Assembly (NCBI GenBank): GCA_029891345.1
Contig: CM057009.1
Location: 297,228,466 to 297,292,465, forward strand
Length of the DNA: 64,000 nt
Reading direction: 5' to 3'
From: Dryococelus australis
Lineage: Eukaryota > Arthropoda > Insecta > Phasmatodea > Phasmatidae
Positions within the stretch are counted from its first letter, which is position 1. Each line of letters opens with the position of its first letter. Below the pieces are notes generated by a model that was not told where the DNA came from, did no database searches, and worked only from the letters and a program-made list of their open reading frames with translations. Positions 1-61,616 of the stretch are shown here, piece after piece. The position numbers and the translations under genes are program-made.

Positions 1-670
1 CTTTTTCACCCTTAATTTCAACTATTATTTCAGTAACTCGATTTGTTTGCACTGGAAAACATAATGGATAAACTGGTTCATAATAGTTCGTGTCGCCAAA
101 TTCAAATGTTGTTCTTGGTTTAAAAGTGGTAATTATGTTAGTTTCTCTATGATTATATTCATCATGTTTTAATATCATACCATTTACTATATTACAGTGT
201 ATATTTATTCTTTCAAATGGAGCAAATTTTGGAATTGTATCGCCATAATGGTCCACATTTTCTTTCAGAGTTTTATTTTCTACGAAACCCAAAAGTTTTC
301 CTATTGAACCCTGTTTTCCAAACTGTAATTTAAGCATACATTTTACTTTCACTCTGCTTGTTATTTTATCCAACTCGAAAGAAATATCATTTTCTCTCTC
401 ACCCATTGAATCTACACTAAATGAAAAAATTTCTTTTATAGTTTTTTCAAGATCGTTTAAGCTATATTAACGAACTGGAATATCAATTACTTATTCCATA
501 TCATTCTGACCCACAAAATATAGCTTATTTCTCCCAGAGATAATGTTATGTGTTAGATAAGTAGTATAGAACTGAACTAAAGCCAATGAGTGCCCCTCTA
601 TCTCTAAAGGGCAATGTAGTCTTTTCTTCAACACTGATTTGTTATCTGTTAGTTTGAATACTTTACTCAT
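1..670 (-). pseudogene. Candidate minor capsid (penton-like) protein, partial
   Basis: The minus strand from the ATG at 670 reads in one frame for 223 codons to the window edge, interrupted by two TAA stops about 60 and 68 codons in. The protein starts MSKVFKLTDNKS, has mixed beta-type composition and contains EFGDTNYYEPVYP near the visible end. There is no signal peptide or membrane segment. It is divergent from the packaging ATPase, with 30 bp between the two start codons. In Polintons an ATPase neighbour of this size is often a capsid component, and a single-jelly-roll penton is my best guess, but I recognise no diagnostic motif. The absence of any frameshift over 670 bp is notable given the two stops. 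Confidence 0.45.
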
Positions 671-700
671 TCATTATATCATTAAAAAATATATTAATAA
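671..700. promoter_or_regulatory. Compact divergent promoter region (minor capsid candidate / ATPase)
   Basis: Only 30 bases separate the start codons of the minus gene (670) and the plus ATPase gene (701). The interval is almost pure A and T. It contains ATATTAATAA directly before the plus ATG and, read on the minus strand, GATATAATGA just before the minus ATG. Both resemble the TATATAATAA motif found exactly at other gene starts of the element. Its role as a shared promoter is inferred from position. Confidence 0.5.
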
Positions 701-1402
701 ATGAGCAAGAAAAACATGAAATATGTAGACTGGGATATTAAAATAAGAATACCAGACAAGACTGTATCGACAAAACATCATGGTGAATTATTACCTAATA
801 ATATTAGGTGTTTGATAGTGGGTCCTAGTAACTGTGAAAAAACTACACTTATGATAGATAATTTTATATATGCTCAGGGATGGTTGGACTTTGGTACTCT
901 CTATGTATGTTCAAAAAGTCTGGACCAACCAAAATATATCAATTTAAAGAACGATATAGATGTATCATCAAAAATATTTAATGAACCAATAGCATACTTC
1001 TTTCCATCAAATTAAGAAATGGTTGATGTAAATGAATGCCATGAAGCATCTGTAGTTTTATTCGATGATATCATACTTGAAAACCAAAATATGGTAAGGG
1101 ATTACTTTACTCACGGTAGACACAAAGATATAGATTGTTTCTATTTAGCCCAGACATACTCAAAAGTACCCAAGCAGCTTATAAGAGACAATGCCAATTT
1201 TCTTTGCATTTTCAGACAAGACGATACAAATCTTAAACATATTCATAGTGATTTTGTTGGTGGTGATATGTAGTTTGAGAAATTTAGGGAGACTTGTTCA
1301 AAAGGTTGGAATAATGAATATGGTTTTGTTACACTAGATATGACTTGTAAGTTTAATAATGGCAAGTACGGTAATAAAATTAAAGACTTTTTAAATCCTT
1401 AG
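701..1402 (+). pseudogene. Packaging ATPase (FtsK/HerA type) of the Polinton, broken by stops
   Basis: This is the genome-packaging ATPase expected to pump DNA into the capsid. The Walker A region reads GPSNCEKTT, where the usual glycine before lysine is glutamate (a G to A change). Walker B is VVLFDD about 130 codons in, followed by AQTYSKVPKQLI, a typical sensor region for this family. One frame runs from 701 to the TAG at 1400 (233 codons), with a TAA at about 1016 and a TAG at 1271 inside. The total length fits the family (about 220 to 250 residues). It lies divergent to the preceding gene and is followed 12 bases later by a strong hairpin. The altered P-loop and two stops make it a pseudogene. 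Confidence 0.85.
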
Positions 1403-1413
1403 ATTAGAAGTAA

Positions 1414-1444
1414 GTTTTTAATGGAAGAGTATCCATTAAAAAAC
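1414..1444. terminator. Hairpin between convergent genes
   Basis: TTTTTAATGGA at 1415-1425 pairs with TCCATTAAAAA at 1432-1442, an 11-bp perfect stem with a 6-base loop. It lies 12 bases after the ATPase stop and 19 bases before the stop of the minus-strand gene ending at 1463, so it could end or process transcripts from both sides. The same stem sequence recurs after the capsid gene at 6566-6595. Function is inferred from placement. Confidence 0.65.
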
Positions 1445-1462
1445 TAACATAATCTGATATTT

Positions 1463-2046
1463 TTAAATGTATTCATATACCATAGCAATATCAATAAACA
1501 CAGTTGTACCTTCGGGTACGTTGTGGGCCTATGGTATTTTAAAATATGTCATATAATCAGGGTATACTTCAAAAATTTCATACTTGTCAATTTCTTTTCC
1601 ATTGATGATATAAGTTAATAAAACTATAATATTTTTTGGTTTTATTATTATTTCAACTATAGTTCCATCTCTCATAAAAATATTCTATTCGATTATCAAA
1701 GTAAAATACTTTTTTCTTTTGAACTATATTTCCCAACTAAACGAATAATGTTAATTCTGTTTTTTCTGATAGTACTCTAAATTGTTTGCATCCATCGGTG
1801 CAATGGGATTTCCCACATGTCTTAGTATTTTTTGTTCAAAATCTATATTCTTATCTACTTCAAAGTAAGATAGGCTTTATCCAATGATCTTTTATTTCTT
1901 GTCAATATGACTATAAAGTCGTTGAACTGTGTATTGGAAACAAAATCATTAGGATTGATCTTTTCAGTAGTTGCATCATTGTCCATGTGTTCTTTAATTT
2001 GATCTTCAATCCAAGAGTTCATTAATGCATTTCCACATATATCCAT
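1463..2046 (-). pseudogene. Unassigned Polinton gene, about 190 codons
   Basis: The minus strand opens with MDICGNALMNSWIEDQIKEH at 2046 and runs 63 codons to a stop at 1855. Coding-like sequence continues in another frame (SLSYFEVDKNIDFEQ, then GNPIAPMDANNLEYYQ) and ends as GTTVFIDIAMVYEYI before a stop at 1463. At least one frameshift near 1860 and three stops break it. The upstream sequence has TATTAATAAA before the ATG, like other starts in the element. The gene follows the protease gene on the same strand, with the starts of one overlapping the frameshifted tail of the other. I do not recognise the family. A structural virion protein is possible because it sits in the capsid/protease block. 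Confidence 0.5.
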
Positions 2047-2880
2047 TGTTTATTAATAGTAAAATCATTTTTGGAAATTTAAAATTATATGAAAAGTGAT
2101 TTAGCACAATTACACTCAAATTATCACAAGTTACTTGATTGAAATTTCGAATACTATCATCCTTATTAAAAAAATTACTTCCGAGATATGCTATTAATTG
2201 TCGCGGTGGATTTCTGCCAAATGAATCAAAATAATATTTGTTGTTTGATTTTTTCCAATAGCATACCCAGTGTGTACCAGAGTTTGTTGAAACATCTAGA
2301 TTAACAATCCCACATTCATTATAGAGTGGTGTGTTAAGTAGCTTATCGATCATAAATACACCCCGAAATTTTTTAATGTTTAATTTTTTAACCATTTGAT
2401 CACTATCGAAGTTACTGAGTGGAGTTACATTTTTTTAACATTCTTACCCCACTTAACTTTCTTCAATCCCTAGCTGTATTCCTCCATAGCTAAATTATGC
2501 CGCCCTTGTTCCTCCAATTCTTGGTTTTTCTTCTCAGCATTAATTTCTGATGTCGCGATAGATTATGCACTACCAGCTAACGCTCCTAGAGCTCCCAATG
2601 CTGCGAAAATTAAGGGGAAAATCCACCCTTGTGAACTGTCAAACCATTTCCAGTTTTCATTTCTTTGGACATTTTCTTAAGCTGTGTGAACTGAAATTGT
2701 GATAGTCATCCCTTTGTCCTCCTTTAATTTCTTGTTTTTACAATCCAGTTGGTCTTTTGTTAGGACAGAATCAATATCCAAACCCTTTAACTCATCATTA
2801 GGAACTTAAAATGCAATGTTTTTGCTTTCATTTATTATAACAAATATTTTATCATTTCAATTTAATTCCCCAAACCTGCT
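2006..2880 (-). pseudogene. Membrane-segment plus adenain-like cysteine protease (PRO)
   Basis: The carboxy half is an adenovirus-type (C5) maturation protease: GTHWVCYW carries the catalytic histidine, YYFDSFG the acidic residue, and QVTCDNLSVIVL the nucleophilic cysteine region. The amino half contains a small-residue hydrophobic segment, GWIFPLIFAALGALGALAGS, like the membrane-type segment fused to PRO in insect Polintons, followed by a charged helix (INAEKKNQELEEQ). The amino half from about 2880 to 2440 is one frame with five stops. A frameshift at an A-run near 2435 leads into the protease frame starting MVKKLNIKKF. The frame after the cysteine shifts again, so the tail to 2006 is spurious and overlaps the next gene start at 2046. 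The role would be cleavage of capsid precursors. Confidence 0.8.
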
Positions 2881-3306
2881 TACGTTTAATATGCATCGCA
2901 GATCCAGTAACACCAGCCCACAATCACTCTTTGAGATCAGCATCTGAACTTTACAATCTTTTGAATGCTTTCTTTTCTAGTTCTTTGTCAGCTACATGTC
3001 TTTCAGCTAGATCTTTATAATGATATAAGATATATCATGTTACATTGCAGCCACATCTAGTGGATTAATGGGTTTATCACCATGCTCAATTCTCTCTTTT
3101 AGTCTAGTACCTGGACCCAAGTACTGATAACCGGGTACATGCAACTCAAAAGGTAGTGAATTTATTGTGTCATTGAGTAACCCTTTTCCGTGATGCTCCG
3201 ACTTCCAAAAAGTATGTGTTACTGTGTTTAACATTCGTATCAGATATGGTATACCTTTTGGATTATTCACAACAAAGTCACTAAATTTGTTGTTAAGCAT
3301 ATTCAT
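2852..3306 (-). pseudogene. Phospholipase A2-domain protein (parvovirus VP1-type fold)
   Basis: From the ATG at 3306 the protein contains LPFELHVPGYQYLGPGTRLK and then ERIEHGDKPINPLD. This matches the calcium-binding loop (YxGPGT) and following helix of the phospholipase A2 domain known from parvovirus VP1 and from Polinton proteins. In the family a cysteine and a His-Asp pair follow. Here HDISY follows directly after an in-frame TAA at 3040, and the cysteine position reads alanine. After one frameshift a basic helix, DKELEKKAFKRL, continues to about 2852. The enzyme would cut membrane lipids, for instance during escape from a vesicle. This copy lacks an intact active site. It sits between the acidic-repeat gene upstream and the protease gene downstream, with slight overlap with the latter. 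Confidence 0.78.
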
Positions 3307-3320
3307 TATTTTCTAACTGT

Positions 3321-4315
3321 TTAATTGTAATAGTTATAATTTCCAGCATTCTCTTCACCAAAAATAATGAGAAGTCGATCAATAAACATCCTAACATCAT
3401 CCATCCGTATGTATTCTTTGGGATAGTGTGTATACTTCTTTATACCTTTCCCCTTTTTAGGCGTGGAGCATTTCTTTTTAATCGAATCGTAAATAGGTTT
3501 AACAATAATTTTCTATTTATTCCCTTTACTCGATTTTGGCATTCCCAATTATGGATCATTGTTTTGAAAAACTGTGTTTGTATCTGATAGGAAACGGCTA
3601 TAGTGTTTATAGTCGGTTGCAGTGTAGTCACTTTCTTACTAGTTTGTAATTTCATCAAACTATCAGTTCCAGTGTATGTCCGACCTTTTACAGTAAATTT
3701 GTCATTGATGAATGTTCTTTGCTATCACCAATATACAATCTACCTTTATCAGCCTTTAGTCCAAAAACATTGTCTTTGCAGTCAATTAAGAAATCGGCCA
3801 CTTTCTTATCAATAAATGTTGTTTTGTAGTTAGTTAACTGTAAGATATCAGTTTTCAAATGCCCCAATGCTTCGTCATAGCGTTCGTCATCATAGCGTTC
3901 ATTGTCATCATCAATGTGTTTAATGCCATCATCATAGTGTTCATCGTCATAGCATTAATTGTTATAGCGTTCATCGTCATCATCAATGCATTTAATGCCA
4001 TCATCATAGCGTTTATCGGTGGCTGTTTTACCAAACAGTTTTCTTTCAAAAGATGTTTCTGTTGGTGTTTGTGGGTAGTCTAAATTCTTAACATCAAATG
4101 GAACAAGTTCTTTTATTAAGTTCTTATTCTCATTTGTTACATGTCCAATTTTTTTGCCCCAAATCTTCTACCGCATCTATCAATGGTTGATCGTGTTTTT
4201 TATTTTTATCATATTCATCTTGGCAAAATTTTCTAAAAGTTTTAAACTTTTCAATTAGCTGTCTTCTTCTCTCTATATTCTTCTCTATATTGTTTACAAT
4301 TTTTTGTTGTCTCAT
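3321..4315 (-). pseudogene. Polinton gene with acidic tandem repeat, function unknown
   Basis: The start at 4315 is set by the exact motif TATATAATAA before the ATG. The first 60 residues form a basic coiled-coil-like helix (MRQQKIVNNIEKNIERRRQL). Codons from about 4025 to 3870 encode a D/Y-rich repeat, such as YDDGIKCIDDDDERY then YDDGIKHIDDDNERY. The rest includes DNVFGLKADKGRLYIGDS and ends, after frame changes, GNYNYYN at 3321. The length of about 330 codons and the pattern helix, acidic linker, then a domain with GxxxDxxRxxIGDS match a gene regularly present in insect Polintons whose function I do not know. At least three frameshifts and several stops break it. It is divergent from the integrase with 20 bp between start codons. 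Confidence 0.6.
3868..4025 (-). repeat. In-gene tandem repeat encoding acidic D/Y-rich units
   Basis: Two long imperfect copies of a roughly 75-base unit lie in tandem, each built of shorter GATGAT/CGCTATGA pieces. On the coding (minus) strand they give YDDGIK, then (C/H)IDDDDERY. This is likely a length-variable disordered linker. Confidence 0.7.
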
Positions 4316-4335
4316 TTATTATATAAGTAAATAAA
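4313..4335. promoter_or_regulatory. 20-bp divergent promoter with TATATAATAA start motif
   Basis: Start codons at 4315 (minus) and 4336 (plus) are separated by 20 bases. On the minus strand the sequence reads TATATAATAAATG. On the plus strand the ATG follows TAAGTAAATAAA. There is no room for separate promoters, so one shared AT-rich element is inferred. Confidence 0.6.
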
Positions 4336-5412
4336 ATGAACAATGATAACTTAAATGTATACTGTCTCAAATGTATGAAAAATACATTAAGTTCACATGA
4401 ACTTAGAAATAAAAACAAAGTAAGAATTAAATGTGTTTGTAGATGTTGTGTTACTAATAACTCGATATTTACTGGTGGGAGTACAAAACACGATATTGTA
4501 AATGAAATTCAATAACCAATACGAAAAAACTTCCCCAGAAGAACTGTTCTATCTTTTGGTATCGATGATCTTTGGCAAGCTGATTTAGTTGAGATGAATT
4601 CTGGATCTTTAAAAAATATACATAGAATTAACAAAGGGTTTAAATATATGTTAACCATGATATATGTTTTTTCAAAATATGCTTGGGCAATACCAATCCA
4701 AGATAAAACTTGTGAAAATGTTACGTTAGCATTTAAAACTATTTTGAATGATTGCAAACCCATGAATTTACAAACAGACAAAGGGAAAGGATTTTACAAT
4801 CAATCATTTAAGGTATTAATGGCCAATAACAACATAACACACTATTCAACATATAGTGAAAAGAAAGCTATTGTTGTATAATGATTTAATAGAACATTGA
4901 AGGAGAAAATGTGGAAGATATTTACTATGTAGGGAAACAATAAATGGGTGGCTGTATTACCTAAATTAATAAGTGAATACAACAACACTGTTCACAGTAC
5001 TATTGGAATGAAACCCACCGATGTAAATTCAAAGAATGAAAGTTCTATTCTAATCTACATGTATGGAGGAGAAAGAAAAATGGTTAAACCAAAGTTTGCA
5101 ATAGGAGATAATGTTTGTATAAGTAAAAGTAAAAATTTGTTTTAAAAAGGATATACACCAAATTGGTCCACTGAAGTATCTGAGGTGTATGAAGTATTGC
5201 ACACAAAACCCACAACATATAGAATAAAAGATTAAAAAAATAAACTTATTAAAGGAATTTTTTATGAGCCAGAGCAGCTTAAGACCAAATATGATAAAGA
5301 CTACATAGCGGAAAAAGTTTTGCGAATAAAAGGAAATAAACTGCTAATTAAATGGTTAGGTTTTGATAGTAGTCATATTTCTTTGGTTGATAAGAAAAGT
5401 GTAGTTGTTTAG
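4336..5412 (+). pseudogene. Polinton integrase (retroviral type, zinc-binding + DDE + chromodomain)
   Basis: The whole 358-codon gene is in one frame from the ATG at 4336 to the TAG at 5410, with six internal stops and no frameshift. It has an N-terminal cysteine-rich zinc-binding part (YCLKCMKN, later CVCRCC). The catalytic core has DLWQADLVEM with the first Asp and LQTDKGKGFYN with the second. The third acidic residue is expected in the stretch before FNRTLKEKMW, and exactly there two consecutive stops occur (TAA TGA at 4879-4884). A chromodomain-like end reads AEKVLRIKGNKLLIKWLG. The enzyme would insert the element into host DNA. Loss of the catalytic position and six stops make it inactive. 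It shares a 20-bp divergent promoter with the preceding minus gene and is followed 24 bases later by the capsid gene. Confidence 0.93.
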
Positions 5413-5426
5413 GAAATTTATTTTTC

Positions 5427-5439
5427 TATATAATAAATG
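5427..5439 (+). promoter_or_regulatory. TATATAATAAATG start motif of the capsid gene
   Basis: An exact copy of the 13-base motif overlaps the ATG at 5437. It fills much of the 24-base gap after the integrase stop. Identical copies are at 4313-4325 and 10858-10870 on the minus strand. Confidence 0.6.
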
Positions 5440-6542
5440 GATCAACATAAAATTGAAAGTTATGAGCATCAGTCGTTGCTGCTAAACAACCAAACAATAA
5501 AATAATTTGAATGAATACAACAAGCTTATTGAGTTTGATATTATTATTGGCGATGCATTTTCACATCCAAATGAAGCTTATGTATACCAACCATATAAGC
5601 TAACTAAAAGAGATACAAAAGCAGATTATGAAAAAACTTCGACTATTGTTCTTTGTGAGAATTTCTTCCCATATGTTAGGAAAGATAAGTGTAACGAAAT
5701 TACCCATTCATTAATATTTGTTTGGGTTTATGAGGGATTGTAATGAAATATTCTGGAAAGGTGGGTACAAGATCACATTCATTCGAAGTTCTAATGATGA
5801 TGTTTCACTTTACAGAAGACCCCCAAAGAAAGCAGATGGATCTGATGATGAAGATAATAAACCAGATGCTGGTAAAATTGTTATTGAGGAAATGGAAATT
5901 CTGTGGCCAATTGTTGAATACGATCCTATTTTCGAGACGAAATTAAAGCAAAATTATACAAACACCCCAAAATTAGAATTAGTTTTAATTATTGGAAATG
6001 TCGTGAAAAACCAGTACCTACTAATGCAAACTCATTTCAGTTTGATATAAAAGATCAGTTCAATTCAATCCGATATGCCAGACTTTGTCATTGTTGGTTT
6101 TCAGCACATCAGATAAGAAGCTCCTGGGCAATTCACACATGGTTCAATGTTTGACTCTTGTTTTGTCAAAAATATTTCTATTAAGAATGGATGGAATGAA
6201 GTGTTTCCCAAAGAGAATTGGAATTTAAACATTGATCATAAAATTTTTGATAACATGTATATTGCTTACAATGATTTTATAAATTCAAAGACTAAACTAG
6301 ATACCCCTTATAGTAATAATGAATTGTGCTTCAACTCTGGGTCATTTATTGAGGGAAGACCATTGTATATTAATGATTGTTTTTACAGAAAAACCGCTAT
6401 TGTAAATGATCGAAGTTATCTGAAACTTACAGTTGATTTTAATAAACCAATATTGGCTACAACTATTTGTAATGTGGTACTAGTAAGCCAAAGAAACCTA
6501 ATTTATGATGTTAAAAGTGAAAGAATCACCGAAGTCCAATAG
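5437..6542 (+). pseudogene. Major capsid protein (hexon-like, double jelly roll), frameshifted
   Basis: The start at 5437 carries the TATATAATAA motif. The first 20 codons (MDQHKIESYEHQSLLL) run into a stop, and coding continues in three successive frame segments. These include FWKGGYKITFIRSSNDDVSL, IVEEMEILWPIVEYD-like sequence, PDFVIVGFQ, and MFDSCFVKNISIKNGWNEVF. The string of features FVIVGFQ, then FDSCxVKNI, then YNDF, matches the carboxy half of insect Polinton/adintovirus major capsid proteins. The total length of about 370 codons fits the form encoded in this family. At least three frameshifts and several stops are visible. The last frame (6147-6542) is open for 131 codons and ends VKSERITEVQ. 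A strong hairpin follows 24 bases after the stop. Confidence 0.7.
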
Positions 6543-6565
6543 TGCGCAAACATGTATGGTTATTA

Positions 6566-6595
6566 GTTTTTAATGGATGGTTATCCATTAAAAAC
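6566..6595. terminator. 13-bp perfect hairpin after the capsid gene
   Basis: GTTTTTAATGGAT at 6566-6578 is exactly complementary to 6583-6595, with loop GGTT. It starts 24 bases after the capsid stop and faces minus-strand genes, as the hairpin at 1414-1444 does. The shared stem sequence suggests a common signal for ending or processing transcripts. Confidence 0.7.
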
Positions 6596-6676
6596 ATTTA
6601 CTGTTATATCATTTTTCTTTAATAGCACTATAAGAGTGTTTTTAAGGGATCTGAAAAAACCGTGAGAGGATCCACT

Positions 6677-6720
6677 TTAATTGTGACAACAGCTTCTTAT
6701 ACTTTCCCATTACATTCACT
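6677..6720. repeat. 44-bp direct repeat, copy 1
   Basis: This is 43/44 identical to 7054-7097. Both copies code for the same BRO-like segment on the minus strand, with a repeat period of 377 bp. Confidence 0.9.
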
Positions 6721-7053
6721 CACAAAGTTTTTTCAGATAAGTATTCTCGCAATGTCTTTCGCTTTGAATAACGGATTATTCTCTTAGTCGATACACCTTT
6801 TTACCGCCGTAGATAAGCTTGTTGTTCATGATTGCATTTTGTCATGCTTTCCTTTAAGCTTGCGCACAATTTTATGCAAACGATATCAGCGATAAGGCGA
6901 CTCGCGCTTTGTGATGGGCAACACCTTTTTTAAGAGACTCACTGAAATCTGTAGCAATTTGTAGATGAGAATATCAACTTGTGCAACCCGGGCTCTGAAA
7001 GAGAACTGTGTGGGGATGCGCATTCTTAATGTGGGTTCCTCAAGTCCGCTCTC

Positions 7054-7097
7054 TTAATTGTGACAACAGCTTCTTATACTTTTCCATTACATTCACT
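7054..7097. repeat. 44-bp direct repeat, copy 2
   Basis: Partner of 6677-6720. It lies just past the recognisable end of the polymerase reading frame and marks the junction between the polymerase tail and BRO-like sequence. Confidence 0.9.
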
Positions 7098-10000
7098 TGC
7101 AATGCTTTTTTCAATTTTGTAGTGTCCCCATGGTAGTGTATTAATGCCATCTTTAAGAATAAATCTTTTATCAACTTTGGGACTTAATGATTTTTTTCTC
7201 ATCTCAATCATATAGAGTTCATGTTTCTTACTTTTAATAAGATTCATATGTTTATACAACACTTTTTTTTTTTTACCAAACGAACACGTTTTCTAGTCAC
7301 CAAAACTAATCTCTTTTCTGACTACAGTGTTTTTCACACCCTTTGTTATTTTCTTTACACCACCTTCCACATTTATTGCATACATTTTCGATTTCAATCC
7401 AATAAATTCTTCCATTATTTTCCATTACATTCACCTTTCATTTTGCCAATAAACTTTTTGTTAACCAACAGTATACCATATGGATTATCTTTTTTTTAGT
7501 CAGAAGTATCAAAATAATCGACCATTTCTTTCATGACACTGTAGAAGTCTGGTGTTTTAATATAATAGATGTACGAATCAGTATCTTGGTAGCACAGTTC
7601 AATATTTCCCCCATACTTTGGTTTCATTATATTATAGTGAATATCGTACATTAAGACTTTCGATAGATCAAGTATACTCATTCCAACATAAATGGGTTTG
7701 TTAAAGCATAGTTTTGTTTTAATCATATGAACTGCAACCAAAGAGTTAGTAAATATTATTCTATCTTTAAAGTTTGGTTTAGTCACTAGTTTATCCATTT
7801 GCTTAGAACTTGTGCACAAACGTATATCCACTCTGATTCTAATATTTTCTATGGTTTTTTTTTTTTCAAAAACGGAATTGTTCATTAATTTGTAGAAATC
7901 TTTTTCAAAGTCATTTGTAGACTTTGGTCGTATATTTGTGTTTAGATCAATATAGGACTTGAGCCAATCTGATTGATCAAACTCCAGAGCTCTATGGATC
8001 TTTTTCAACTTCATTCATTCATTCATAGTGTAATATATATTTTTAGGATTTTTTTAACCTTCCGGTATTTTATTCTCTGGTGCCAAAGACAGATCTTTGT
8101 GGAGATCGTGTAGTTCATGTGGGTATTCCAAATCAACTTCCAATATATAACCTTTGCTAAAATCATCTTCTATTTTTCTTACATATATATTTGTATTTCC
8201 CCACTTAAACCCACCATAGGGTAAATACTAACTCATAGCCCATCCATAGAAGTTATTGGCATCCAGATATATAAGATAAAAGATTTCCTTTGTACTATCA
8301 TAAGCATTCATATATTTATTATTTGCTTTAGAATATCACTTACAAAATTGTGAAATTCCACCACGAACATCTTTTTCTATCATAAAAATCATGTCGTAAT
8401 CTGTTAATAATTCTAGTTCTATTTTCGTATGTTTGAGCATAGCATCCCACGCTAACCCTGGTGCTGTGAAATACCATGCTGGATCTAGCTTATATGTTTT
8501 GAAACATACATCTCTAAAATTTTCCATTTTATCAGACAATATCAATACATCAGATTTGTTATAGAGTTCTGTGTTCTCTCTTAGATATTTTATGTTGAAT
8601 TTTTCCCACACCTTTCTCGAAAATTCGTAATCTTAGTCTGTAATGTTACATTTATTGAGTTTGTTGTAAAATGCATCTTTGTATGGAAGTGATGTCTCAC
8701 AAAATTTTTCAGCACTATCCATGTAGTCATATGGGTAAACACATTTTCTTGTAACAAAGTCAAGAAGTTCATTGGAAAAATGCTTACACTTTTCTCGGAA
8801 TTGGCTTCTGGAAACATTGCTAGAGAGTTTATCGATACTACTAGCCATAAATTTAAATGAGTCAATAAATCTAAGATTTACACTTTCACATACATGTTTC
8901 GTAAAATAAATATATTTGTCTTCCTTGTTGGGAATTAGATCAATTTTATTTTCATCGATTCGAAGATCTCTTATTATGAATAAATGTGTGTCATAACCAG
9001 ATAGATTGTGTATAAACACTGGGACAAAACATGGATTTCTATATGATAAGTTACAATCTCTGTGTGCAGCTCCCCTAAATTTCCCTGTAAGATGATCATG
9101 ATCTCTCACAGAATCACCATTCAAAGGCTTTTCACATAAATGACAATGGGTAGCTGTATCATAAACAAATGGTTCTTTCTGAGTTAGTGAAAGCTTTGGT
9201 TTTTCATTTGTGTATATATCACAAATAGACTTTGCTTCTTCCATTAGCATTTTAACGTATACACTAAATGCATCAGATCCTTCCTAAGTTATTGATGGTT
9301 TACAGTATCCATGTTTGTATTTTACATAGTAACAGAAGCTAATAGGCTCGTGTTTTTGGTATTGTTTCGTGTAACATTCGTCGGGGTTTGGTTGGCAAGT
9401 TTCAATTTTAGTCAACAAACATTCAAAATCAGCATATATCACAAACGGAACTCTCAAAGAATGATTTTGGTTTTTAAATCTTAATGTCATTTTTTTCTTT
9501 AGATGGATGTTCAACTCTAACTCCATCGTGATCTCGACAGTCTTGTTCGTGATCTTTTAGCTTATTTACAGAGTAGAAATGTTGCAAACATCTATCGCAT
9601 ATAAATATTTTATCACCATTAATTGTTACTTGTGATGCGATAAGTCTCGAAAGACTTTTTATCCAACAGTAATGGTCGTTATTTTCGTCTTTGATATAGA
9701 GTAGGTTTATGTGCTTATCCGTCTTATTTTTTTTTGTTTTTAATGGAAAGATTATATATTTCTTACCACCATCTTCTACTTCGTATGCATATACATTAAT
9801 ATAAACTCCACTTCTTATCTCAAAGGTTGGTATGCTATCCAATTTAATTGGAAATTCCAAACCCTTAAGTGCATCATCAAACTCATGTTCGTAAGCTATG
9901 TATTTATTCACTCTTTGAGGGTCTTTTTCTACTTGATGTAATGCAGGTAGATCAGAACAAAAATAACATTTTTGGTCATTGTTCTTAACATTAATTACCA

Positions 10001-10860
10001 CCTGCTTAGTTTTGGTTTTTTCTGGGAGATCAACAAAAGAACTGCCCTTGAATGGTACATATTTACTTATTCGCAATTCCAGTTTAAATATTCTGTTGAG
10101 TACCCACTGAGATCCCTTTGTTTCGAAATCCCCCATCTCAGCTATGATTTTCGATATGCTGTTGGTATAATATTCTTCCAGATTAGTCGATTTCAGTATA
10201 ATTTTGTTCTTTGTTTAAAAGGATCTTTCTACATATTCAATATTCTCACCAATTCCCCTTTCGTACTCAGTGAAGAATTTCATGTTCACTTTGAATGATT
10301 TTAAATGTTTACTAATTAGTCCTATGACAGTTTCTTTTACATAATTTAGGAAATGATTTGGGTCTTTGTATGCATTCACATTATTTACAGCACAAGTCTT
10401 GATCCAACTTTGAAATGCTGTTTCGATTTCTTCTACACTGAATCTGGGCGTGTACATATGAATTTGACTTCTCAAGTGACTTCTTATGAGAGACGGTTTG
10501 TAATAGTGACTACACGTTTCACATTTAACTTGTATCTCTCATGGTAACTTCTGTTTTGATATTAAATGTTGTGATACTTTAAAAATTTCCCATGGATTTG
10601 TTGGTTCATGTGATTTATTATGTATTGGTGTAAGACCTTTGTGCAATCTACTTTTAAGATGACTTCTTATGAGAGATGGTTTGTAAAAGTGATTACAAGT
10701 TTCACACTTGACATACTTCTCTTGAAATTTCTTCTTCTTTCTTTCCGCAAAAAGTCTTTCTTAAATTTATATTATTTCCAAACATTACCAGTTGCGTTAG
10801 TCTTTTTCATTGCAATGGCCGTCATCATATTAGACATCAGTTGATTTTTATTTGCGCCAT
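7098..10860 (-). pseudogene. Protein-primed family B DNA polymerase of the Polinton (PolB)
   Basis: The start at 10860 follows an exact TATATAATAA motif. In order: two C2H2 zinc fingers (CETCNHFYKPSLIRSHL near 10700 and CETCSHYYKPSLIRSHL near 10510); a further cysteine/histidine module with CDRCLQHF; exonuclease motif I FVIYADFEC; a zinc-type insert CHLCEKPL with RDHDHLTGKFRG; exonuclease II FIHNLSGYDTHLF; exonuclease III YNKSDVLILSD; polymerase motif A YLDANNFYGWAM; motif B DFYKLMNNSVF (the following Gly-Lys reads Glu-Lys); motif C CYQDTDSYIY; and a tail with SKKHELYMIE and WGHYKIEK. It would replicate the element using a protein primer. About 9526 to 7496 is one frame with six stops. Frameshifts occur near 10,740, 9,500 and 7,450-7,260. 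Confidence 0.93.
10480..10740 (-). repeat. Tandem-duplicated C2H2 zinc-finger segment in PolB
   Basis: Two segments about 180 bases apart encode nearly the same finger: VKCETC, then 12 residues, then H and a second H (FYKPSLIRSHLKSRLH and YYKPSLIRSHLRSQIH). The copies differ by a few substitutions, so they probably arose by internal duplication in the N-terminal extension of the polymerase. Confidence 0.75.
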
Positions 10861-10870
10861 TTATTATATA
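10858..10870 (-). promoter_or_regulatory. TATATAATAAATG start motif of PolB
   Basis: This is the third exact copy of the motif, reading on the minus strand into the ATG of the polymerase. It fixes the likely translation start ahead of the zinc fingers. Confidence 0.6.
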
Positions 10871-11245
10871 CAACATAATTGTTTGAGCCATTTTTTTGCA
10901 ACTACACCCAAACGCATGTTTTTACGTGTATTTTTGCAGATGCACTCAAACGCAAAGTTTAACACAACTTTTTGAGCCACTTTTTTGCGGTTGCACCTAA
11001 ACGCAACTTTTTATGTGTATTTTTGCAACTGTACTCAAATCAACTTTTTGTCACTTTTTTGCGGTTGCTCCCAAACGCCACTTTATGAGCCTTTTTTTGC
11101 GGTTGCGCTCGAATCGGCATTTTATGTTTTAGATCAGAAAATTAAGAGTAATTTTTTCTGATGGTTTTCTGATGGCTCGAGCATTTAATATACCGTTGTT
11201 TTTCTGATAACTGGTGGCTGCGCTCGAATCGGCATTTTTATACTA
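10871..11245. repeat. Subterminal/terminal tandem repeats of the Polinton
   Basis: About eight imperfect units of 35 to 48 bases repeat the theme TTTTTGCGGTTGCxCTCAAAC followed by GCAACTTTTTGAGCC. The last clear unit (CTGCGCTCGAATCGGCATTT) ends near 11,240. Polintons carry long terminal inverted repeats, often with internal tandem repeats. The matching left end is outside the window. A boundary at about 11,242 (ATACT) is a guess. Confidence 0.6.
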
Positions 11246-14200
11246 CCTGTGTCCCATCGGCTGTGAAATATTTAACCACCACTAACGGTAAAATAATAAA
11301 TTCACGAAAATTTAATTAAGAAATGACAAAAGAAAATACGGTATCATACACTCGGAGGGGCTCAACTCCAGTCACAGATATACACTGAGGCGATATGAAG
11401 TTAGCAAGACACGTACAAAAGGGTTATAAGTTATGTTTGCTTTCGACAATAAAACAATATTTTACAGGGACAAAATTCTCAAATGTGCGCTGGCAGGAAT
11501 TGAGTTGCGGTACCTCTGAACTAATCCAACTAATCTCCACCCCACCACGGGACATTCGTTCTGTGCGAAAGCTTACCGTGCGGGCAGGCACTCACAAACG
11601 CACACTTACAAGAACAGAACTTCACTCGTTATCAATCACATGAAAAAATTGCAAAATATTACGGAAGAAATTACAGAATTATTTCATACTGTATAGTCCA
11701 GTGAAGAAAGCTTCCAAATACAATCTGTATTACTAATTTTGTAGGAATGCTAATCTGCACACAACAATTAAAAGTAAACATACCATAACCGCAAACTTTC
11801 AAACACACACGCAAAAAATTCTAACCAATCATTAGAGACATGCAAAATTCGCGTTATTATTCGGCATCAGCCTAAAATTCACAATGCTGTCTGTACTAGA
11901 TACGGCGTCGTTTATCCATTGGCTGCTACTTTGATGTGAAGCCACGCCCTTTCTGATTGAACTCTACGTGATTGGAGTACACAGTCCTGAAGTATTTATT
12001 TATTGGCGTAGAGTAATACGGGGATTGTCAAATAAGCATGGTACGCTGGCAAACGTATTGCAAAGGTACACGTGTTGTAGGTTTAACGTGTTCCATAACA
12101 ATAAGGCGAGTTTCGCACGTCTCTATCAATCACTGCTGGTCCTTTCGCAACATTTACCCGTTTCCCACCCGAGACCTAGACGTCCATCGTGAGTGTTAAT
12201 ATTTTCCTGTCCGCAAATTTCTCATTTCCAGCCTTCACAGTGCAGATAAAATTAAAAAAAAAAAAGTTCCTTTACAGTTTTACAAGATGCGAACAGCCGA
12301 ACACAAGAGAAAAAATATACGTATCTGAATCTAGTAAAATATAATGGGGGAAGGTCAAAGGAAACTGCTTCCGTGATGTTTTCTCGCATCATATCGAAGC
12401 TAAAAAAAACTGAGCATTCCTCTATCCGGGAAGTAAAATTCAAAGTTGCAGTACTTACAAAATACCATACTGGAAATACCCTGGAAAACACCAGAGTTGG
12501 AAATTACAGTTACATGTAAATTGATAGGTCAATCATAATTTACATCTCGAGCACCGTGCTTTTTTTTGTCTAACCGAACTACGACATTGTGTTCGTCTCA
12601 TGTGCAGAGTAGCCCGATAACATTAGAAATACCTATATATCGAATGCCACAATGACTTAGTCTCTACGTACTCAAAACTACAATCCTTTATTTGTTCTGT
12701 CATGAATATATTCCAGTACTCCCGGGGGAAAAAAAAACTAATTGCCATGTCTGTAGACATGCGGAACAAGGAATTTTGAACGAGAATTAGAGAACTCGTG
12801 GACGAAGGATAAGAGCGAGCCGCGAGTACCGAGTCTCACAACCAGGTCACTCGGATGAAAGTGCTCGAATACTCGGGCCACATTTCCCAGATATCACAAA
12901 AACTCGTACGAGGCGAATTCCTTGACATTTCGAACTCGAATACCTTCATCACTACTCGCGACTCTTCACCAGGAATCCACAGCGGCAGAAGTCCTGTTTC
13001 CCGGCTCCCAATTGTCACACTTTCCAAACTCGGCTTTCCTATTGTCTAAGCAACGTTATCATGTAACCGAGGTTACCTGAAATCCACCAAAATATTTCAT
13101 TGCTATTTGTGTTTTCAAAACAGTTTTCACTACATGGAGTTATACTTGTCGCGCGTTTTAGGCGTCCGCCAACGAATCACAGACATTCAGTGTTTGTCTA
13201 CTGTAGTTACAAATGACGCAGTTGCACGCGCGCGTGCGTGCGTGTGTACGGGTCGCTCACGGCGAACTGAAAACTTCCTCCTTAATACCTAGATATTTGT
13301 ATCTACCTTGTGTACTCTTCCGTCATACGTAGGACAAATATTGATACGGGCCTGGTCACGTTATTCATCATCGGCCAAACGAAAACTGTGGCATTATTAG
13401 AAAAGTAATCATTTCATATATTTGCTAATTTTACAGTCATTAAGCAGTAAAAAAACAGAAAGCAAAATAAATAGTTTCGCTATTCTCAACTTTTATTAAA
13501 GACCCTTTTTTTTATTCAACGTCAAGACGAACTATTTTCCTTCCGTCGTTACCAACTTTGCAGGGTGTATGCCATTCTGTGCGTCCGTTAAATCACATGC
13601 AGGCCAGAACAAAGATATTTTTTAAAGGTGACTTCAAAAGGGCTCAATTAACCAACGTTAAGATATTGAAATATAGTCTGCATGGGAATCATTTTGTAAA
13701 AATCACGCGCCCCTACTCATAACTAGTGCTTAGTGCACTCTATACATGTAAATTGCTTAGTACGAGAAGCAGAAGTTCGTGTTATATTGCCAGGCAATCG
13801 AAAACCATTCCTGACTCTTGAGTATTAAAATATCTACTTTATAAGCTCGTTAACTATAGTCCTGGACATTGCAAAACAAAAATAAAACTTTTACATGTGA
13901 GTATTTAACTCGTACCGCGCGAATTTTGGCATGGCCTAGCTGGAGATAGTGAGAACACTTCCGCACTTAACTCGTTTAAGAGATATATAAACCATCTGTA
14001 ACTCCCGGGCAGCTAAATAGCATATTGACACAAATGTGTTCTATTAAACTTATTTTATGTTTCTACTGCATCACTTGTATTATATATATTATATATTATC
14101 TATATATACAATATTTGTAGCGTTCATTAAAATTTAGTACTTAGATTTATTAGAGACTCGAGTTTGGTATAGAAGCACATACCAAATTCAAACCAGGCAA

Positions 14201-25327: not shown

Positions 25328-25582
25328 TCTCTTGCTCTCATCGCAGTCGTATATGAGGTCAAACGTGACGCCATTTAATTCAATACGTCATATTGTCCGT
25401 TGCTTTAACCTGAAATCGTATAACATCGCCGTTTACTTCCTGGCACCCTGTGTGTCAGACCGATTTTAAATTTGTATTCACGCCAAAACTTTTTTTTTTC
25501 TTCACGAATAAATTTGATGATGGAGACAGACGTTACACTGGTTGCTGATTTTTGTCTATTCATACATTGTCCAGAATCTCAT

Positions 25583-26487
25583 GAATCGATTGTAAATACT
25601 CTTAGCAAGATGTGCAATTACCTCGTATTTCTGCTCCAGCTTCAAGGGAATGTACCAGCCTCGGGGCGCACGTTAGACAGTATGTCATACCATGTGTTTT
25701 CGCCTTATGAATACGCGGACGGCGCTTGTTATTGCAGTTACGAAACACATGTGGGATTGTTCTGAATCGATTGTAAATACTTTTAGCAAGATGTGCAATT
25801 ACCTCGTATTTCTGCTCCAGCTTCAAGGGAATGTACCAGCCTTGGAGCGCACTTTAGACAGTATGTCATACCATGTGTTTTCGCCTTATGAATACCCGGA
25901 CGGCGCTTGTTATTGCAGTTACGAAACACATGTGGGATTGTTCTGAATCGATTGTAAATACTTTTAGCAAGATGTGCAATTACCTCGTATTTCTGCTCCA
26001 GCTTCAAGGGAATGTACCAGCCTCGGGGCGCACGTTAGACAGTATGTCATACCATGTGTTTTCGCCTTATGAATACGCGGACGGCGCTTGTTATTGCAGT
26101 TACGAAACACATATGGGATTGTTCTGAATCGATTGTAAATACTTTTAGCAAGATGTGCAATTACCTCGTATTTCTGCTCCAGCTTCAAGGGAATGTACCA
26201 GCCTTGGGGCGCACGTTAGACAGTATGTCATACCATGTGTTTTCGCCTTATGAATACGCGGACGGCGCTTGTTATTGCAGTTACGAAACACATATGGGAT
26301 TGTTCTGAATCGATTGTAAATACTTTTAGCAAGATGTGCAATTACCTCGTATTTCTGCTCCAGCTTCAAGGGAATGTACCAGCCTTGGGGCGCACGTTAG
26401 ACAGTATGTCATACCATGTGTTTTCGCCTTATGAATACGCGGACGGCGCTTGTTATTGCAGTTACGAAACACATGTGGGATTGTTCT
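25583..26487. repeat. 181-bp satellite, five tandem copies
   Basis: Five head-to-tail copies begin at GAATCGATTGTAAATAC with an exact 181-base period (25583, 25764, 25945, 26126, 26307). Divergence is only a few bases per copy, so the array is young. Each copy has short open frames on both strands, but 181 is not a multiple of three and every frame stops within one copy, so it is not a coding repeat. Confidence 0.95.
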
Positions 26488-28480
26488 GAATTCTCAGGCA
26501 AAACCATGGACGTAACTAGAAAATATTCTCGGAGGGAGTTAAACCAATCATTCAGTATTAAGTAATCATCCACATGAGTTGCATTTTTATTCTCTATTTA
26601 ACAGCAAAAAGAATTGCAAAATGGCAAAAAATTTTAAAAATTATATTTTTAACTACCGTTTGGTTATGTTATAACAATTCATATAACAAATAAGTAATTT
26701 TTTCTTCTAAATTAAAGGTGTAGAAATGTTATCATCTGCAGTCGTACATAACTTTTTCATCTTGTTGCACACAGTGAATTATTTCATGGCATCTTGGTAC
26801 ACAGAGTGTCCTCATTCTTTTTTATGCAAATGAAACAAAATTTAAACTCTACAGACAGTACTTACGTTTAAAACTATTATATGCAAATATTGAATAAACC
26901 GCGTGTCACACACACAGTTTATCTCTGCTTGGCTGGAGAGACACACGTGGAAAGTCAATACTGCATGATTCAGTAGCAGTTCACTTTCGGAGATGCAACT
27001 TCTTGAAATCACAATGGAGAATCAATCCGCCTAATATGTCTCCTTTTCCTGCAACATCCCAAATCAAGAACTGCCTCTCTGTCAGGTTAAGCAACTTTGT
27101 TTACTGGCACATAATAATCCTTTGGCCAGTACGAAGTTATATTATCGTTGGAGTGTTACTGTTATTTCTTTTTTCCATTTTGCATTTAGCTTTACTTTAC
27201 ATCGTAATTATAAAATTACCACTGGAATGTTCATCTCCGTCAGTTGTAGGATTATTTCTGTACTAAGAGGCATCTCCAAGAATTTCCCGCAACATAATTG
27301 AAATTTTAAAAAAATGCTAACATTTCGGAGGTGTTTTGAACCCCAAAATCCCATACTTTTATGTACCCCTATGGGTAAAAGCGCTATGAGGCGATTTGTT
27401 ATGCATTATGCAAAATGAGATAGAAAACAGGACACAACCTAGTAAAGAAAAAACCAATTATTATTCAGTTTTAAAACAATGAAAACTACTTTATATGCGT
27501 AACGAATTCAGTTAGAAATTTTAAAACCGTGGCCCAAGATCAAAATTTTAATAATGGATACGATCTACTACATTTTTATCATCACAAAAGATCGCTTTGT
27601 TGTGTCACGCTCAGACGAACAGGTTTCAAGGAAACTGCTACAAAATTATAAATTCTGCAGTTGTTTGCCTGCCCATTATGCAATCTGACTATAACATTTT
27701 ACTCTCGTTGCCATCAAAATTTGCGCACCCTGCAGAAATGATTTGGCAAACTATGGGTGACGTACAAACAAAACATTTTCGTGCGATGGAACAAGCATCT
27801 TTGTTCTACGAGGAAGCTGGCATTGCTCTTCGTGTCGCATATATAAAATGTCCTCAGAACAGTGTGTATAATATGAAACTGATAATATTTTCGAGGCGAT
27901 ATAACTGAGCTAAAGCCAAGTCAAGGAGACGTACGAGACAGCCGTACCAACAATTGAAGGAGTTTGAAAATCAAGATAATATGTCTGCGATAGACAATGT
28001 TTCCCAGCAGAAGCCAGGCCGGGCCTCACCACCACCTCCTCCCAGAACCGATCCCCAATAAGGTATACTATGAGCACTACTTAAGTTCTTAGACCATTCA
28101 TCTATGGGTGCTGCAGATTTTATTAGGCTATCAACTTCTCCGGGATAACATTGCCAAAGTCGAGCCAACCCCTAATACATAAATAAAGACTTCATTCTTA
28201 CTCGAGGGATTTAATTTTTATCTAATCATTACAAGCCATCTCGGAACGTATCTATCAAATCTGGAGTTCTCAAATCAACCCCTAATAATGCCATACTATG
28301 GCTGTTTCTGCTTGAATTTTACAAATCACACTTCTGTGTTCATTCTTTTTTGTCAAAGCCTGCTATATTCGTGTATTAAACTCCTCATTAGTCATAATTG
28401 GGGGTATTTTGTCACCATAAGGTAAGTCTGCCAGCTAGGCAACAGATATCAGATACAGGTTGCCTTGGTCCATGACATCC
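26488..28480. other. Non-coding DNA, nothing recognised
   Basis: There is an open frame of 103 codons at 27597-27908 without recognised motifs and a hydrophobic frame at 27003-27266. Neither has coding context. Confidence 0.45.
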
Positions 28481-30497: not shown

Positions 30498-31544
30498 ATG
30501 TGGTCTAGTGAGAGTGAAAATGAAGATGGCCATTTCCGACATACTCGTATGCTCAGAGAACGTATACATTTTGCTTTTAATTCACCTGTAGAATAAAATG
30601 AACATTATAGGTTGAGTCAATAGTGCTCTTGAACAATTGTTGCAAGATATTGGGTTTAGGTTAGAGCATGTAACAAATCTAAACCATGCTATTTCGGCTA
30701 AACTGCAAATAGTGGTTGCATTACATTGGCTAGGGAATGGTGGACAATACCATGGCATTGCATATATGCATGGCTTTGAAAAATATTCCTAATTTCGAGC
30801 AGTTCAGTCTGTTTTTAGAGCTGTCTACGAAATTAAGTTCCCAGCAGTAGTTAACTTGCCCGAAAATGCCGACAATGCCGTTCTACAGTTTCACGATAAC
30901 GGAGGAATGCCTCATGAAGTAGGGACTGCAGACGAAAATTTAATCCAAATTGATGGATCTCTTAATTACGAAGAACAGTAAGTTGTCAGACATGGTAACC
31001 ATTCTATCAATTGTATGTTTGTGTTTGGGCCTGACCGAAAATTTTATTCCGGCAGTGCTAATTGACCAGAAAGTGTGCAAAATTCAAGAGTTCTTAGAAA
31101 CATCTTTACCGAGGAACGGAACAAGTTTGGCGACCTTTTCCTCGTTCCATATTTCTTGCAGATACTGCATACCCTCTTAGAGAATGGCTTACCACTCCCA
31201 AACTTAATGATCTCGATCAACCACGTGAAACAAGGTTCAATAGAGCACACAAGATAAAAAGGACATTAAATGGACAAGCAATTGGGATTCTTAAAGAAAA
31301 GTTTCCATACTTGAATTATTTGAGAGTGAACCTGACATTTGCTATCAACATATTCGAATGTTGCTTTACTCTGTGTAATGTATCTCGACAAGACGCAAAT
31401 GATGAGGCAATACCTTTACTAGGAGCCAAGGTCGATGGTGAAGACGAAATTGACACTGAGGAAAACCTTGCCGAGGACAATGATGAGGCCCCTGGATCAG
31501 CTGCTATTAATAGCAGAGAGCAACTAATTAATGATTTTGCTTAA
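30498..31544 (+). pseudogene. PIF/Harbinger (HARBI1-like) DDE transposase, decayed
   Basis: Starting near the ATG at 30498, short frames encode: LLQDIGFRLEHV and LHWLGNGGQYHGIA (N-terminal helix-turn-helix part); GTADENLIQI, where the family has the first catalytic Asp in GCIDGTHI; FVFGPDRKFYSGSAN and NSRVLRN; LADTAYPLREWLTTP with the second Asp; and RFNRAHKIKRTLNGQAIGIL, where the family has its catalytic Glu but this copy shows Gly-Gln. The last part is open from 31311 to 31544 and ends in an acidic tail (EDEIDTEENLAEDND). Multiple stops and frame changes and the lost Glu make it inactive. Confidence 0.85.
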
Positions 31545-49233: not shown

Positions 49234-49300
49234 CTGGCATTGGCTGCGAATGCCAAGTGAGTAGCCAGTAACCATCACTGTAGGGACGCCGGTTCTGTTT

Positions 49301-60492: not shown

Positions 60493-61616
60493 TGTAGATC
60501 CACTGCCTTTATTAGTTTCTAACAAGAAACAGCTCAGAAGAAAAAAAAATTACTTTATGTGAACGGCTACAGACGTGATAATAGTAAGAGGATAACTATA
60601 ATATACCCGTAGATATCAGGAAGTGTGCCAAGCTGTACCCTATGCCTCATCAGCGCGCCAAATGTAAAATATATTCTCTGCTGCCAGTTCTCGGTGAAGA
60701 AAATTATGAATCCAAGTTGGCAAGGACAAATCCCTCTTACGGGAACTATGCAGCTGCGCGTTCCAAGGTCAAGAAATGAGGGAGCGATACGGGCGACAGT
60801 CACACGCACGCCTAGTGCCTCATCGCTCCTACGCGCAAGGCGTGCAGTGTTTCCGTCGTAACGCTGTACTGTGCAACTTGGATCTGTAACATAGGGGTTT
60901 TATTACACGATACGAAAGTCCACAGATTAAACTACATCCGTATATTTTAGTAATTTTTTCTTGCCGCTTAGGGAAACTGCATAGGTAAGCTTTAAAAATG
61001 AGATACTTGACCATTTTCACGATTTTCTCTCTCTCTCCAAGAATACACTTAATAACAAAAGGACAAAAATGACAAAAAGTCATATTTCCAGAACTTTTAT
61101 TTACCGACATACGCGTTTACGCGCAAAAACGATATCACAGATAACATTTCAGTACATGGGACTGCTAAGGTGGTTGCCTAGTGAGAGGGGTGTTTGTGTG
61201 AGCGAGGCAAAAATCGATGAAGTCCGGTCGATGTAAAGTGGTATCGCCTCTAAGCTCAGGTCATTCAACTAGCACACAATGGTTTCGTCGTGATCGTAGA
61301 ACTTCGGGAATTTCAGCAGTGAACATACAATTTGATTGGACGCGACTTTGTAGAAAAGTCCGATGCGTACATCCATTGTAATTTCGCATGTATCAGGTTT
61401 GATTATTCTGAGATACGGAAATTAAAAAAAGAAAAACGTTTTTAGCTCTGTGGAAGAGCATGGAAATATTATTTCCGATGTGCATGATGTCTTGAAAGGA
61501 GGCTTGCCTTCAGTCGTAGTCTCGAATGTCCTTTCTTTTCGCAGGTCAAACTTTTGGGGGCACGTTTAGTAGTTTGTTTTTTTTTTTTTTTTTCAAACAC
61601 GCTGCAAGAAATTTCA
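60493..61616. other. Non-coding DNA
   Basis: Nothing recognised. It ends in a T run at 61,577-61,593 next to the 48-bp array. Confidence 0.4.

What the first reader, a model, noticed from the sequence alone, without database searches (positions are those of the whole stretch)
1..11245. Nearly complete core gene set of a Polinton/adintovirus-like element in a host genome
Eight core or commonly associated genes are recognisable: polymerase, integrase, ATPase, protease, capsid, PLA2 protein and two conserved unknowns. Two more are tentative. It is an informative fossil of a virus-like transposon, and its gene order and strands can be compared with known lineages.
Basis: partly seen in the sequence, partly recalled or inferred. 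Interest (0 to 1): 0.75.

Follow-up and report, generated by a model that had tools for sequence, protein, structure and literature searches.

The report
High-copy Polinton fossil in stick insect
The region is a decayed copy of a Polinton (Maverick), a virus-like mobile element with capsid genes, and its family has left about 2,750 end sequences in the genome of the Lord Howe Island stick insect, most simply explained by one ancient burst of copying.

Summary
Window 1-11247 is the right-hand 91% of a 12,369-bp Polinton/Maverick. Both ends were located; the left terminal repeat lies just left of the window. The ends carry the Maverick (AGT)2//(ACT)2 motif, one base decayed on the right, and 6-bp target duplications that agree in 5 of 6 bases. 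Polymerase, integrase, protease and PLA2 are well supported, ATPase supported, hexon and penton probable; one gene is an unidentified conserved protein. About 20 premature stops of all three kinds fit neutral decay.

Two other copies keep the same gene order and strands where genes remain, so the mixed-strand layout belongs to the family; it differs from the published layouts I could read.

The host is the Dryococelus australis assembly: one contig length equals its published N50 to the base. The family's 26-nt end motif occurs 2,757 times, control 0: about 1,380 insertions if each has two ends. Two sampled copies differ from this one evenly across codon positions, whereas other Polinton families show third-position excess. 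This points to one amplification burst, then neutral decay. Known kind, undescribed family, moderate interest.

The parts
1..11247 (.). Polinton/Maverick element, right-hand 91% (element continues 1,122 bases left of the window; total 12,369 bp)
   Evidence: terminal repeats, end motifs and decayed target duplication
2..670 (-). penton-like minor capsid protein (probable), pieces 2-466 and 494-670, two stops between them; its C-terminal end lies left of the window
   Evidence: one unnamed relative at 60% identity among 17 candidates; 78-93% identical in two sibling copies; the name rests on recalled motifs, no domain match
701..1273 (+). packaging ATPase, pieces 701-1012 and 1016-1270 in one frame; similarity may go on past the stop at 1271 (my reading)
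   Evidence: Pox_A32 1.7e-4, just below cut-off; matches at 44-50% in other Polinton families of the genome
1855..2434 (-). adenain-type cysteine protease, one frame change near 2006-2049
   Evidence: 11 relatives at 41-50% identity among 19 candidates, one with PF00770; weak PDB matches to ASFV S273R (0.026) and adenovirus protease (0.65); active-site neighbours changed
2471..2860 (-). small hydrophobic frame between PLA2 and protease (tentative)
   Evidence: read from the three-frame translation; no search was run on it
2861..3312 (-). PLA2-domain protein; stop-free piece 3043-3312, rest broken over other frames
   Evidence: Phospholip_A2_4 1.3e-5, above cut-off; match to PLA2 of viral contig L002, 3.4e-6
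3443..4315 (-). conserved protein of unknown function, broken over several frames, with a repeat array at 3872-4015
   Evidence: pieces 59-93% identical in the C3 copy; no domain; tandem array
4327..5412 (+). retrovirus-type integrase with N-terminal zinc-type piece and chromodomain-like C-terminal piece; one frame, six premature stops
   Evidence: rve 1.6e-9; PDB retroviral integrases 0.002-0.004; chromobox proteins best PDB match of the end piece, E 0.17 only
5501..6542 (+). major capsid protein (hexon, double jelly-roll; probable), pieces 5501-5740, 5715-6047, 6117-6539
   Evidence: DJR-like_dom 0.0038, below cut-off; mostly 72-90% identical in sibling copies
7077..10760 (-). [quoted passage not shown] at least two frame changes, ten premature stops
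   Evidence: collinear with intact 1313-aa PolB of L002 over residues 152-1307; 91 relatives among 123 candidates
10467..10722 (-). duplicated zinc-finger-like unit near the PolB N-terminus (10467-10539 and 10650-10722)
   Evidence: 81% identical DNA repeat
10877..11247 (.). right terminal inverted repeat with internal tandem repeats, ending in a decayed (ACT)2
   Evidence: 31 mismatches in 367 ungapped columns to the left repeat; tandem units
11248..11253 (.). right copy of the 6-bp target site duplication, 5 of 6 bases equal to the left copy

Best explanation
A degenerate, non-functional copy of a Polinton/Maverick. SHOWN here: both ends, terminal inverted repeats, a decayed 6-bp target duplication, the core gene set, the same gene order in two further copies, a high count of family end sequences, and even divergence across codon positions against two copies. 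INFERRED from the family: an active ancestor copied its linear DNA with its own protein-primed polymerase (terminal-protein and vOTU regions at the N-terminus), its integrase inserted the DNA with 6-bp target duplications, and its capsid, protease, ATPase and PLA2 genes would have packed the DNA and carried it across membranes. In this stick insect one lineage multiplied in a burst, to the order of a thousand insertions, and the copies have since decayed neutrally by roughly 4% per site each.
For: Gene matches. Terminal repeats and target duplications, perfect in the C14 copy. Same order and strands in the C3 copy and in what the C14 copy keeps. 2,757 end motifs against 0 in the control; 150 scored PolB matches, all with E of 2.6e-117 or better, of 17,465 first-look candidates. 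Flat codon-position differences to C3 (186/2092, 158/2096, 165/2097) and C14 (113/1644, 125/1646, 118/1643), against third-position excess to other families. Repeat pairs within elements differ by 8.4, 9.6 and 12.7%, about as much as copies differ from each other, 8.0-14.7%. About 20 premature stops against 14-18 expected at 4-5% substitution.
Against: Hexon and penton names rest on weak evidence; both structure models failed. Only two sibling copies were compared in their genes, and both came from a list of best matches to this terminal repeat. The C3 copy shows a slight first-position excess (0.136/0.101/0.112). The end-motif count includes copies of any length, and motif counts inside the genes did not complete, so the number of gene-bearing copies is unknown. 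0 of 20 random stretches held the family, which fits 0.5% of the genome but does not test it.
Confidence: 0.85

Rival explanations
1. Repeated germline infection: many separate integrations of a circulating adintovirus-like virus over a long time, rather than copying inside the genome.
For: The element carries a whole capsid module; a published protist genome holds thousands of unlike capsid genes, read there as many insertions (PMC10120064, passages). Several distinct Polinton families exist in this genome.
Against: Within this family two sampled copies differ from the window evenly at all codon positions, not with the third-position excess seen between families. Repeat pairs inside elements are about as divergent as repeats of different elements.
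Confidence: 0.12
2. The frame changes and stops are assembly errors, and the copy is intact in the animal.
For: The assembly is from noisy long reads, and its authors warn of residual indel errors in predicted proteins (PMC10268593, passages). Frame changes are therefore doubtful.
Against: About 20 stops by substitution, a changed protease active-site neighbourhood, 7-9% substitutions to sibling copies, 8.4% between its own terminal repeats and a mismatch in the target duplication are not indel errors.
Confidence: 0.03
3. A patchwork of unrelated insertions or a private rearrangement of this locus.
For: The strands are mixed: -, +, -, -, -, +, +, - from left to right.
Against: The C3 copy has every gene in the same order and strand; the C14 copy agrees for what it keeps.
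Confidence: 0.01

Closest known systems
Sf Maverick 1 and 2 of Spodoptera frugiperda (PMC5803895, section 11 part 1 and section 15 read)
   Same: PolB with Endonuclease VII-like domain (about 3.5 kb), Pox_A32-like ATPase, rve integrase with chromodomain, PLA2 protein, adenain-type protease, further conserved frames
   Different: there the eight small genes run in tandem on one strand; here strands are mixed and the order differs
Vertebrate Mavericks (PMC8097293, section 7 and passages)
   Same: (AGT)2//(ACT)2 ends, 6-bp target duplication, core genes; 96% of the loci surveyed there are degraded
   Different: there two modules point towards each other, with integrase, penton, capsid and protease in one; sizes 12.7-24.6 kb against 12.4 kb here
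Adintoviruses (PMC11071296, passages)
   Same: PolB with OTU-like region, rve integrase with chromodomain-like end
   Different: hexon recognisable by BLASTp to reference adintoviruses could not be tested; no free virus is shown here
Mavericks of Timema and Clitarchus stick insects (PMC5691397, one passage)
   Same: high abundance in phasmid genomes already reported (most abundant repeat type in T. cristinae, 3.13%)
   Different: that passage gives repeat-class totals only; no element structure or history

Membership tests
[quoted passage not shown]
   collinear over 1,156 of 1,313 residues of an intact PolB, broken in this copy
Polinton/Maverick | retrovirus-type (rve) integrase | tested here: met
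   rve above cut-off; PDB retroviral integrases
Polinton/Maverick | packaging ATPase | tested here: met
   Pox_A32 1.7e-4, slightly below cut-off; homologous pieces in other Polinton families of the genome
Polinton/Maverick | adenain-type cysteine protease | tested here: met
   11 of 19 candidates, one with PF00770
Polinton/Maverick | double jelly-roll major capsid protein | tested here: inconclusive
   DJR-like_dom 0.0038, below cut-off; structure model failed
Polinton/Maverick | single jelly-roll penton protein | tested here: inconclusive
   conserved protein without domain match; model failed; name recalled from motifs
Polinton/Maverick | terminal inverted repeats with (AGT)2//(ACT)2-type ends | tested here: met
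   perfect at both ends in the C14 copy; motif as reported for vertebrates
Polinton/Maverick | 6-bp target site duplication | tested here: met
   5 of 6 bases here, 6 of 6 in the C14 copy, 4 of 6 in the C3 copy
Polinton/Maverick, group II (insect type) | no VSR-like insertion of about 140 aa in PolB (PMC10328495, passage) | tested here: inconclusive
   no VSR family among Pfam matches of nine PolB pieces and no such insertion against L002; no VSR-bearing PolB was compared
Adintoviridae (as defined in PMC11071296) | PolB with N-terminal OTU-like domain | tested here: inconclusive
   the region aligns at 32% with L002 PolB residues 152-443 and keeps one Cys and one His that I take for the active site; no OTU profile or model was tested
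Adintoviridae (as defined in PMC11071296) | integrase with C-terminal chromodomain | tested here: inconclusive
   chromobox proteins are the best PDB match but E 0.17; no Pfam match
Adintoviridae (as defined in PMC11071296) | hexon recognisable by BLASTp against reference adintoviruses | not testable with these tools
   no reference adintovirus was at hand; the IMG/VR scan with a hexon piece found no relative

The most novel reading that the evidence does not exclude
A complete virus-type Polinton, capsid genes included, amplified inside one animal germline in a single short burst to the order of a thousand insertions, with a gene layout (penton far from hexon, interleaved strands) not among those I could read, and then died out. 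If so, Polintons can behave as true high-copy transposons in animals while still carrying a capsid module, and part of the unclassified repeats of the D. australis genome is virus-derived.
Probability: 0.5. Interest if true: 0.55.

Novelty: new member of a known kind. Interest (0 to 1): 0.4.

Why it matters
Whether Polintons spread in animals as transposons or by repeated infection is, to my knowledge, open. A family with 2,757 traceable ends, gene remnants, paired terminal repeats for dating and sister families in the same genome makes that question countable. The published paper on this assembly has 0 occurrences of Maverick or Polinton in its main text (supplements not read) and leaves 1.56 Gb of repeats unclassified, so naming this family would improve the annotation of a critically endangered insect. 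The element itself is an ordinary Polinton fossil, and Maverick abundance in other stick insects is already in print (PMC5691397, passage).

Tried and rejected
Alternative genetic code or recoding: rejected, because the premature stops are a mixture of TAA, TAG and TGA. Patchwork of insertions: rejected by sibling copies. Structure models of a hexon piece and a penton piece: uninformative, mean pLDDT 31.8 and 34.1; no fold search was run on them. IMG/VR scans with single PolB or hexon pieces found no relative. The protease alignment led to one locus, L001, which by its frames does not look like a Polinton (my reading). PolB alignments led to one IMG/VR contig seen twice, L002 and L003, and to nine contigs from bacterial MAGs. 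The PolB tree left the window unplaced: no well-supported clade of up to half of the rows holds it (55 of 91 relatives were long enough and used, with nine loci and the window). Pfam and PHROGs gave nothing useful for the conserved unknown protein or the penton piece (the unknown protein was not sent to PHROGs). Rfam and tRNA scans of the window were empty. Whole-genome counts of motifs inside the genes were asked for and never answered, so the share of copies that keep their genes is unknown.

Full report
WHAT WAS CHECKED. The window is G000:C17:297228466-297292465 of a 3.415-Gb genome in 646 contigs. Contig C4 is 262,277,254 bases long, exactly the scaffold N50 printed for the Dryococelus australis assembly, whose L50 is 5 (PMC10268593, passages). 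The lengths of C1-C17 likewise give 17 large contigs with C4 fifth. The held copy has 646 contigs, the paper 1,879 scaffolds; the small ones may not all be held. So the host is the Lord Howe Island stick insect. C17 is the fourth longest; the paper calls its Scaffold_4 the X chromosome, so the window may be on the X (inference).

GENES. I searched stop-free pieces and kept them apart. Of 27 distinct pieces scanned with Pfam, three gave expected families above the curated cut-off: rve integrase, PLA2, and Endonuclease VII inside PolB. Three gave expected families below it: Pox_A32, DNA_pol_B_2 and DJR-like_dom. Ten flank frames gave none of the six (0 of 10). Pfam is a weak judge here: the intact Polinton-type PolB of 1313 aa in the IMG/VR contig L002 gets no Pfam match at E up to 0.1. 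That PolB aligns with the window in three collinear blocks covering residues 152-1307, E 2.6e-150, with two frame changes and one stretch missing in the window. One PolB piece has 91 relatives among 123 candidates; the best named one is from the scorpion Centruroides, others from a dragonfly, aphids, spiders and beetles. The protease piece has 11 relatives among 19 candidates at 41-50% identity. The penton-like piece has one unnamed relative at 60% among 17 candidates. From left to right the genes and strands are: penton-like (-), ATPase (+), protease (-), small hydrophobic frame (-, tentative), PLA2 (-), conserved unknown protein (-), integrase (+), hexon-like (+), PolB (-).

ENDS. The right terminal repeat (window 10877-11247) has its inverted partner left of the window, first seen as C17:297227346-297227754. 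The element runs from C17:297227344 to window 11247, 12,369 bp. The left end shows (AGT)2, the right end (ACT)2 with one changed base, and the flanking 6-mers agree in 5 of 6 bases. Vertebrate Mavericks are reported with such ends and 6-bp duplications (PMC8097293, section 7 and passages). Left of the window lie the end of the penton-like gene and a 107-aa accessory frame without a Pfam match.

THE LAYOUT IS THE FAMILY'S. Two further copies with paired ends were fetched. The C3 copy shows all the named genes in the same order and strands. The C14 copy is internally deleted (most of the integrase, PLA2 and protease missing) but keeps the order and strands of the rest; its ends and target duplication are perfect. 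So the mixed strands are not a private rearrangement. In Spodoptera Mavericks eight small genes run in tandem (PMC5803895, section 11 part 1). In most intact vertebrate Mavericks two modules face each other. In Polintons the penton gene is said to lie next to, or more commonly one gene from, the capsid gene (PMC4028283, passages); here it does not, if both names are right. Random stretches of the same genome with other Polinton families show yet another order, for instance in L039 PolB (+), penton-like (-), ATPase (+), integrase (-). Layout therefore varies between families.

COPY NUMBER. The 26-base end motif with up to three mismatches occurs 1,390 times forward and 1,367 times reverse; the reversed control occurs 0 times on either strand, and 0.11 matches are expected in uniform random sequence. 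With two ends per insertion that is about 1,380 insertions, or 17 Mb (0.5%) if all were full length, which they are not; solo ends would raise the number of loci. Six pairs that I picked by eye from the 100 listed ends are 8.4-13.8 kb apart. The terminal-repeat search listed 47 matches, with 40 of 3,505 first-look candidates scored. The PolB search scored 150 of 17,465 candidates, all 150 with E of 2.6e-117 or better; candidates of other families are among the rest. Of 20 random 10-kb stretches, 0 held this family at high DNA identity, in line with 0.5%, and 4 held protein matches to Polinton genes of other families: three with several genes, L052 with an integrase match only. Random places were drawn from 3.08 of 3.42 Gb, because some contig lengths were not yet known. 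[quoted passage not shown]

HISTORY. Window against C3 differs at codon positions 1, 2, 3 by 186/2092, 158/2096 and 165/2097; against C14 by 113/1644, 125/1646 and 118/1643. These counts use 18 gene pieces of the window; for C14 the protease, PLA2 and two integrase pieces had no match. A second, protein-guided count on ten pieces gives 186, 139, 154 of 1371 and 82, 85, 88 of 1102; it includes misaligned edges at frame changes. There is no third-position excess, though C3 has a slight first-position excess. Against other families the third position is clearly the most variable: L048 0.385/0.286/0.522, L039 0.374/0.265/0.509, L053 0.515/0.455/0.715; the MAG and viral contigs L004, L008 and L002 show the same. 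Terminal repeats within one element differ by 8.4% (this one), 9.6% (C3) and 12.7% (C14); between copies by 8.0-14.7%, leaving aside one locus compared with itself and copies 1.1% apart that look like a duplicated segment. The repeats should be equal at insertion (family knowledge), so these copies seem about as old as the family's spread. At about 4% per lineage and a recalled insect rate near 3e-9 per site and generation, that is of the order of ten million generations, a rough guess. I count 23 premature stops (PolB 10, integrase 6, ATPase 2, penton-like 2, hexon-like 2, PLA2 1; positions); the ATPase stop at 1271 and the PolB stop at 10539 rest on my reading of the frames. Expected at 4-5% substitution over 2,254 codons are 14-18. 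Frame changes are less trustworthy, because the assembly's authors warn of long-read indel errors.

HOW IT WORKED. By family knowledge (PMC11071308, sections 4 and 9 read): PolB with terminal-protein and vOTU regions primes and copies linear DNA; the integrase inserts it with a 6-bp duplication; ATPase, protease, hexon and penton make and fill capsids; PLA2 would breach membranes as in parvoviruses (recalled). None of this was tested here. This copy cannot be expected to do it: its integrase, PolB and ATPase are interrupted, and two nearly invariant residues at its protease active site are changed.

STATUS OF THE LITERATURE. The listings of searches show no paper on Polintons of D. australis, and PMC10268593 has 0 occurrences of Maverick or Polinton in its main text (supplements not read). 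The founding adintovirus paper was not held. Papers were seen as follows: PMC5803895 section 11 part 1, section 15 and passages; PMC8097293 section 7 and passages; PMC11071308 outline, sections 4 and 9 and passages; PMC11071296, PMC10328495, PMC8363768, PMC10268593, PMC5691397, PMC6327564, PMC4028283 and PMC10120064 passages only; others in listings only.

Noticed in passing
L004-L012: Nine contigs filed in bacterial MAGs of GTDB encode Polinton-type PolB relatives, probably eukaryotic or viral contigs binned by mistake.
   Followed up: partly
L008:912-2120: One 402-aa frame seems to join a PLA2-like start to an integrase; the window's PLA2 and integrase pieces both match it.
   Followed up: no
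L039, L048, L052, L053: Four of 20 random 10-kb stretches of the host genome match genes of other Polinton families, with other gene orders where several genes are seen; Polintons may fill several percent of this genome.
   Followed up: partly
window 6677-6733 and 7054-7110: A 57-bp direct repeat, 91% identical, at and beyond the 3' end of PolB, perhaps flanking a small insertion.
   Followed up: no
window 10467-10539 and 10650-10722: A zinc-finger-like unit is duplicated at the start of PolB, in the same frame, with a stop codon between the two.
   Followed up: no
G000:C3:262866092 and C3:262947827: Two copies 81 kb apart on opposite strands differ by 1.1% in their terminal repeats: a duplicated segment or an assembly duplicate.
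   Followed up: no
window 25582-26605, 49292-50495, 61520-62095: Tandem arrays with units of 181, 226 and 48 bp in the flank.
   Followed up: no
window 31098-31541: Frame matching DDE_Tnp_4 transposase (PF13359, 2.4e-11): another transposon remnant.
   Followed up: no
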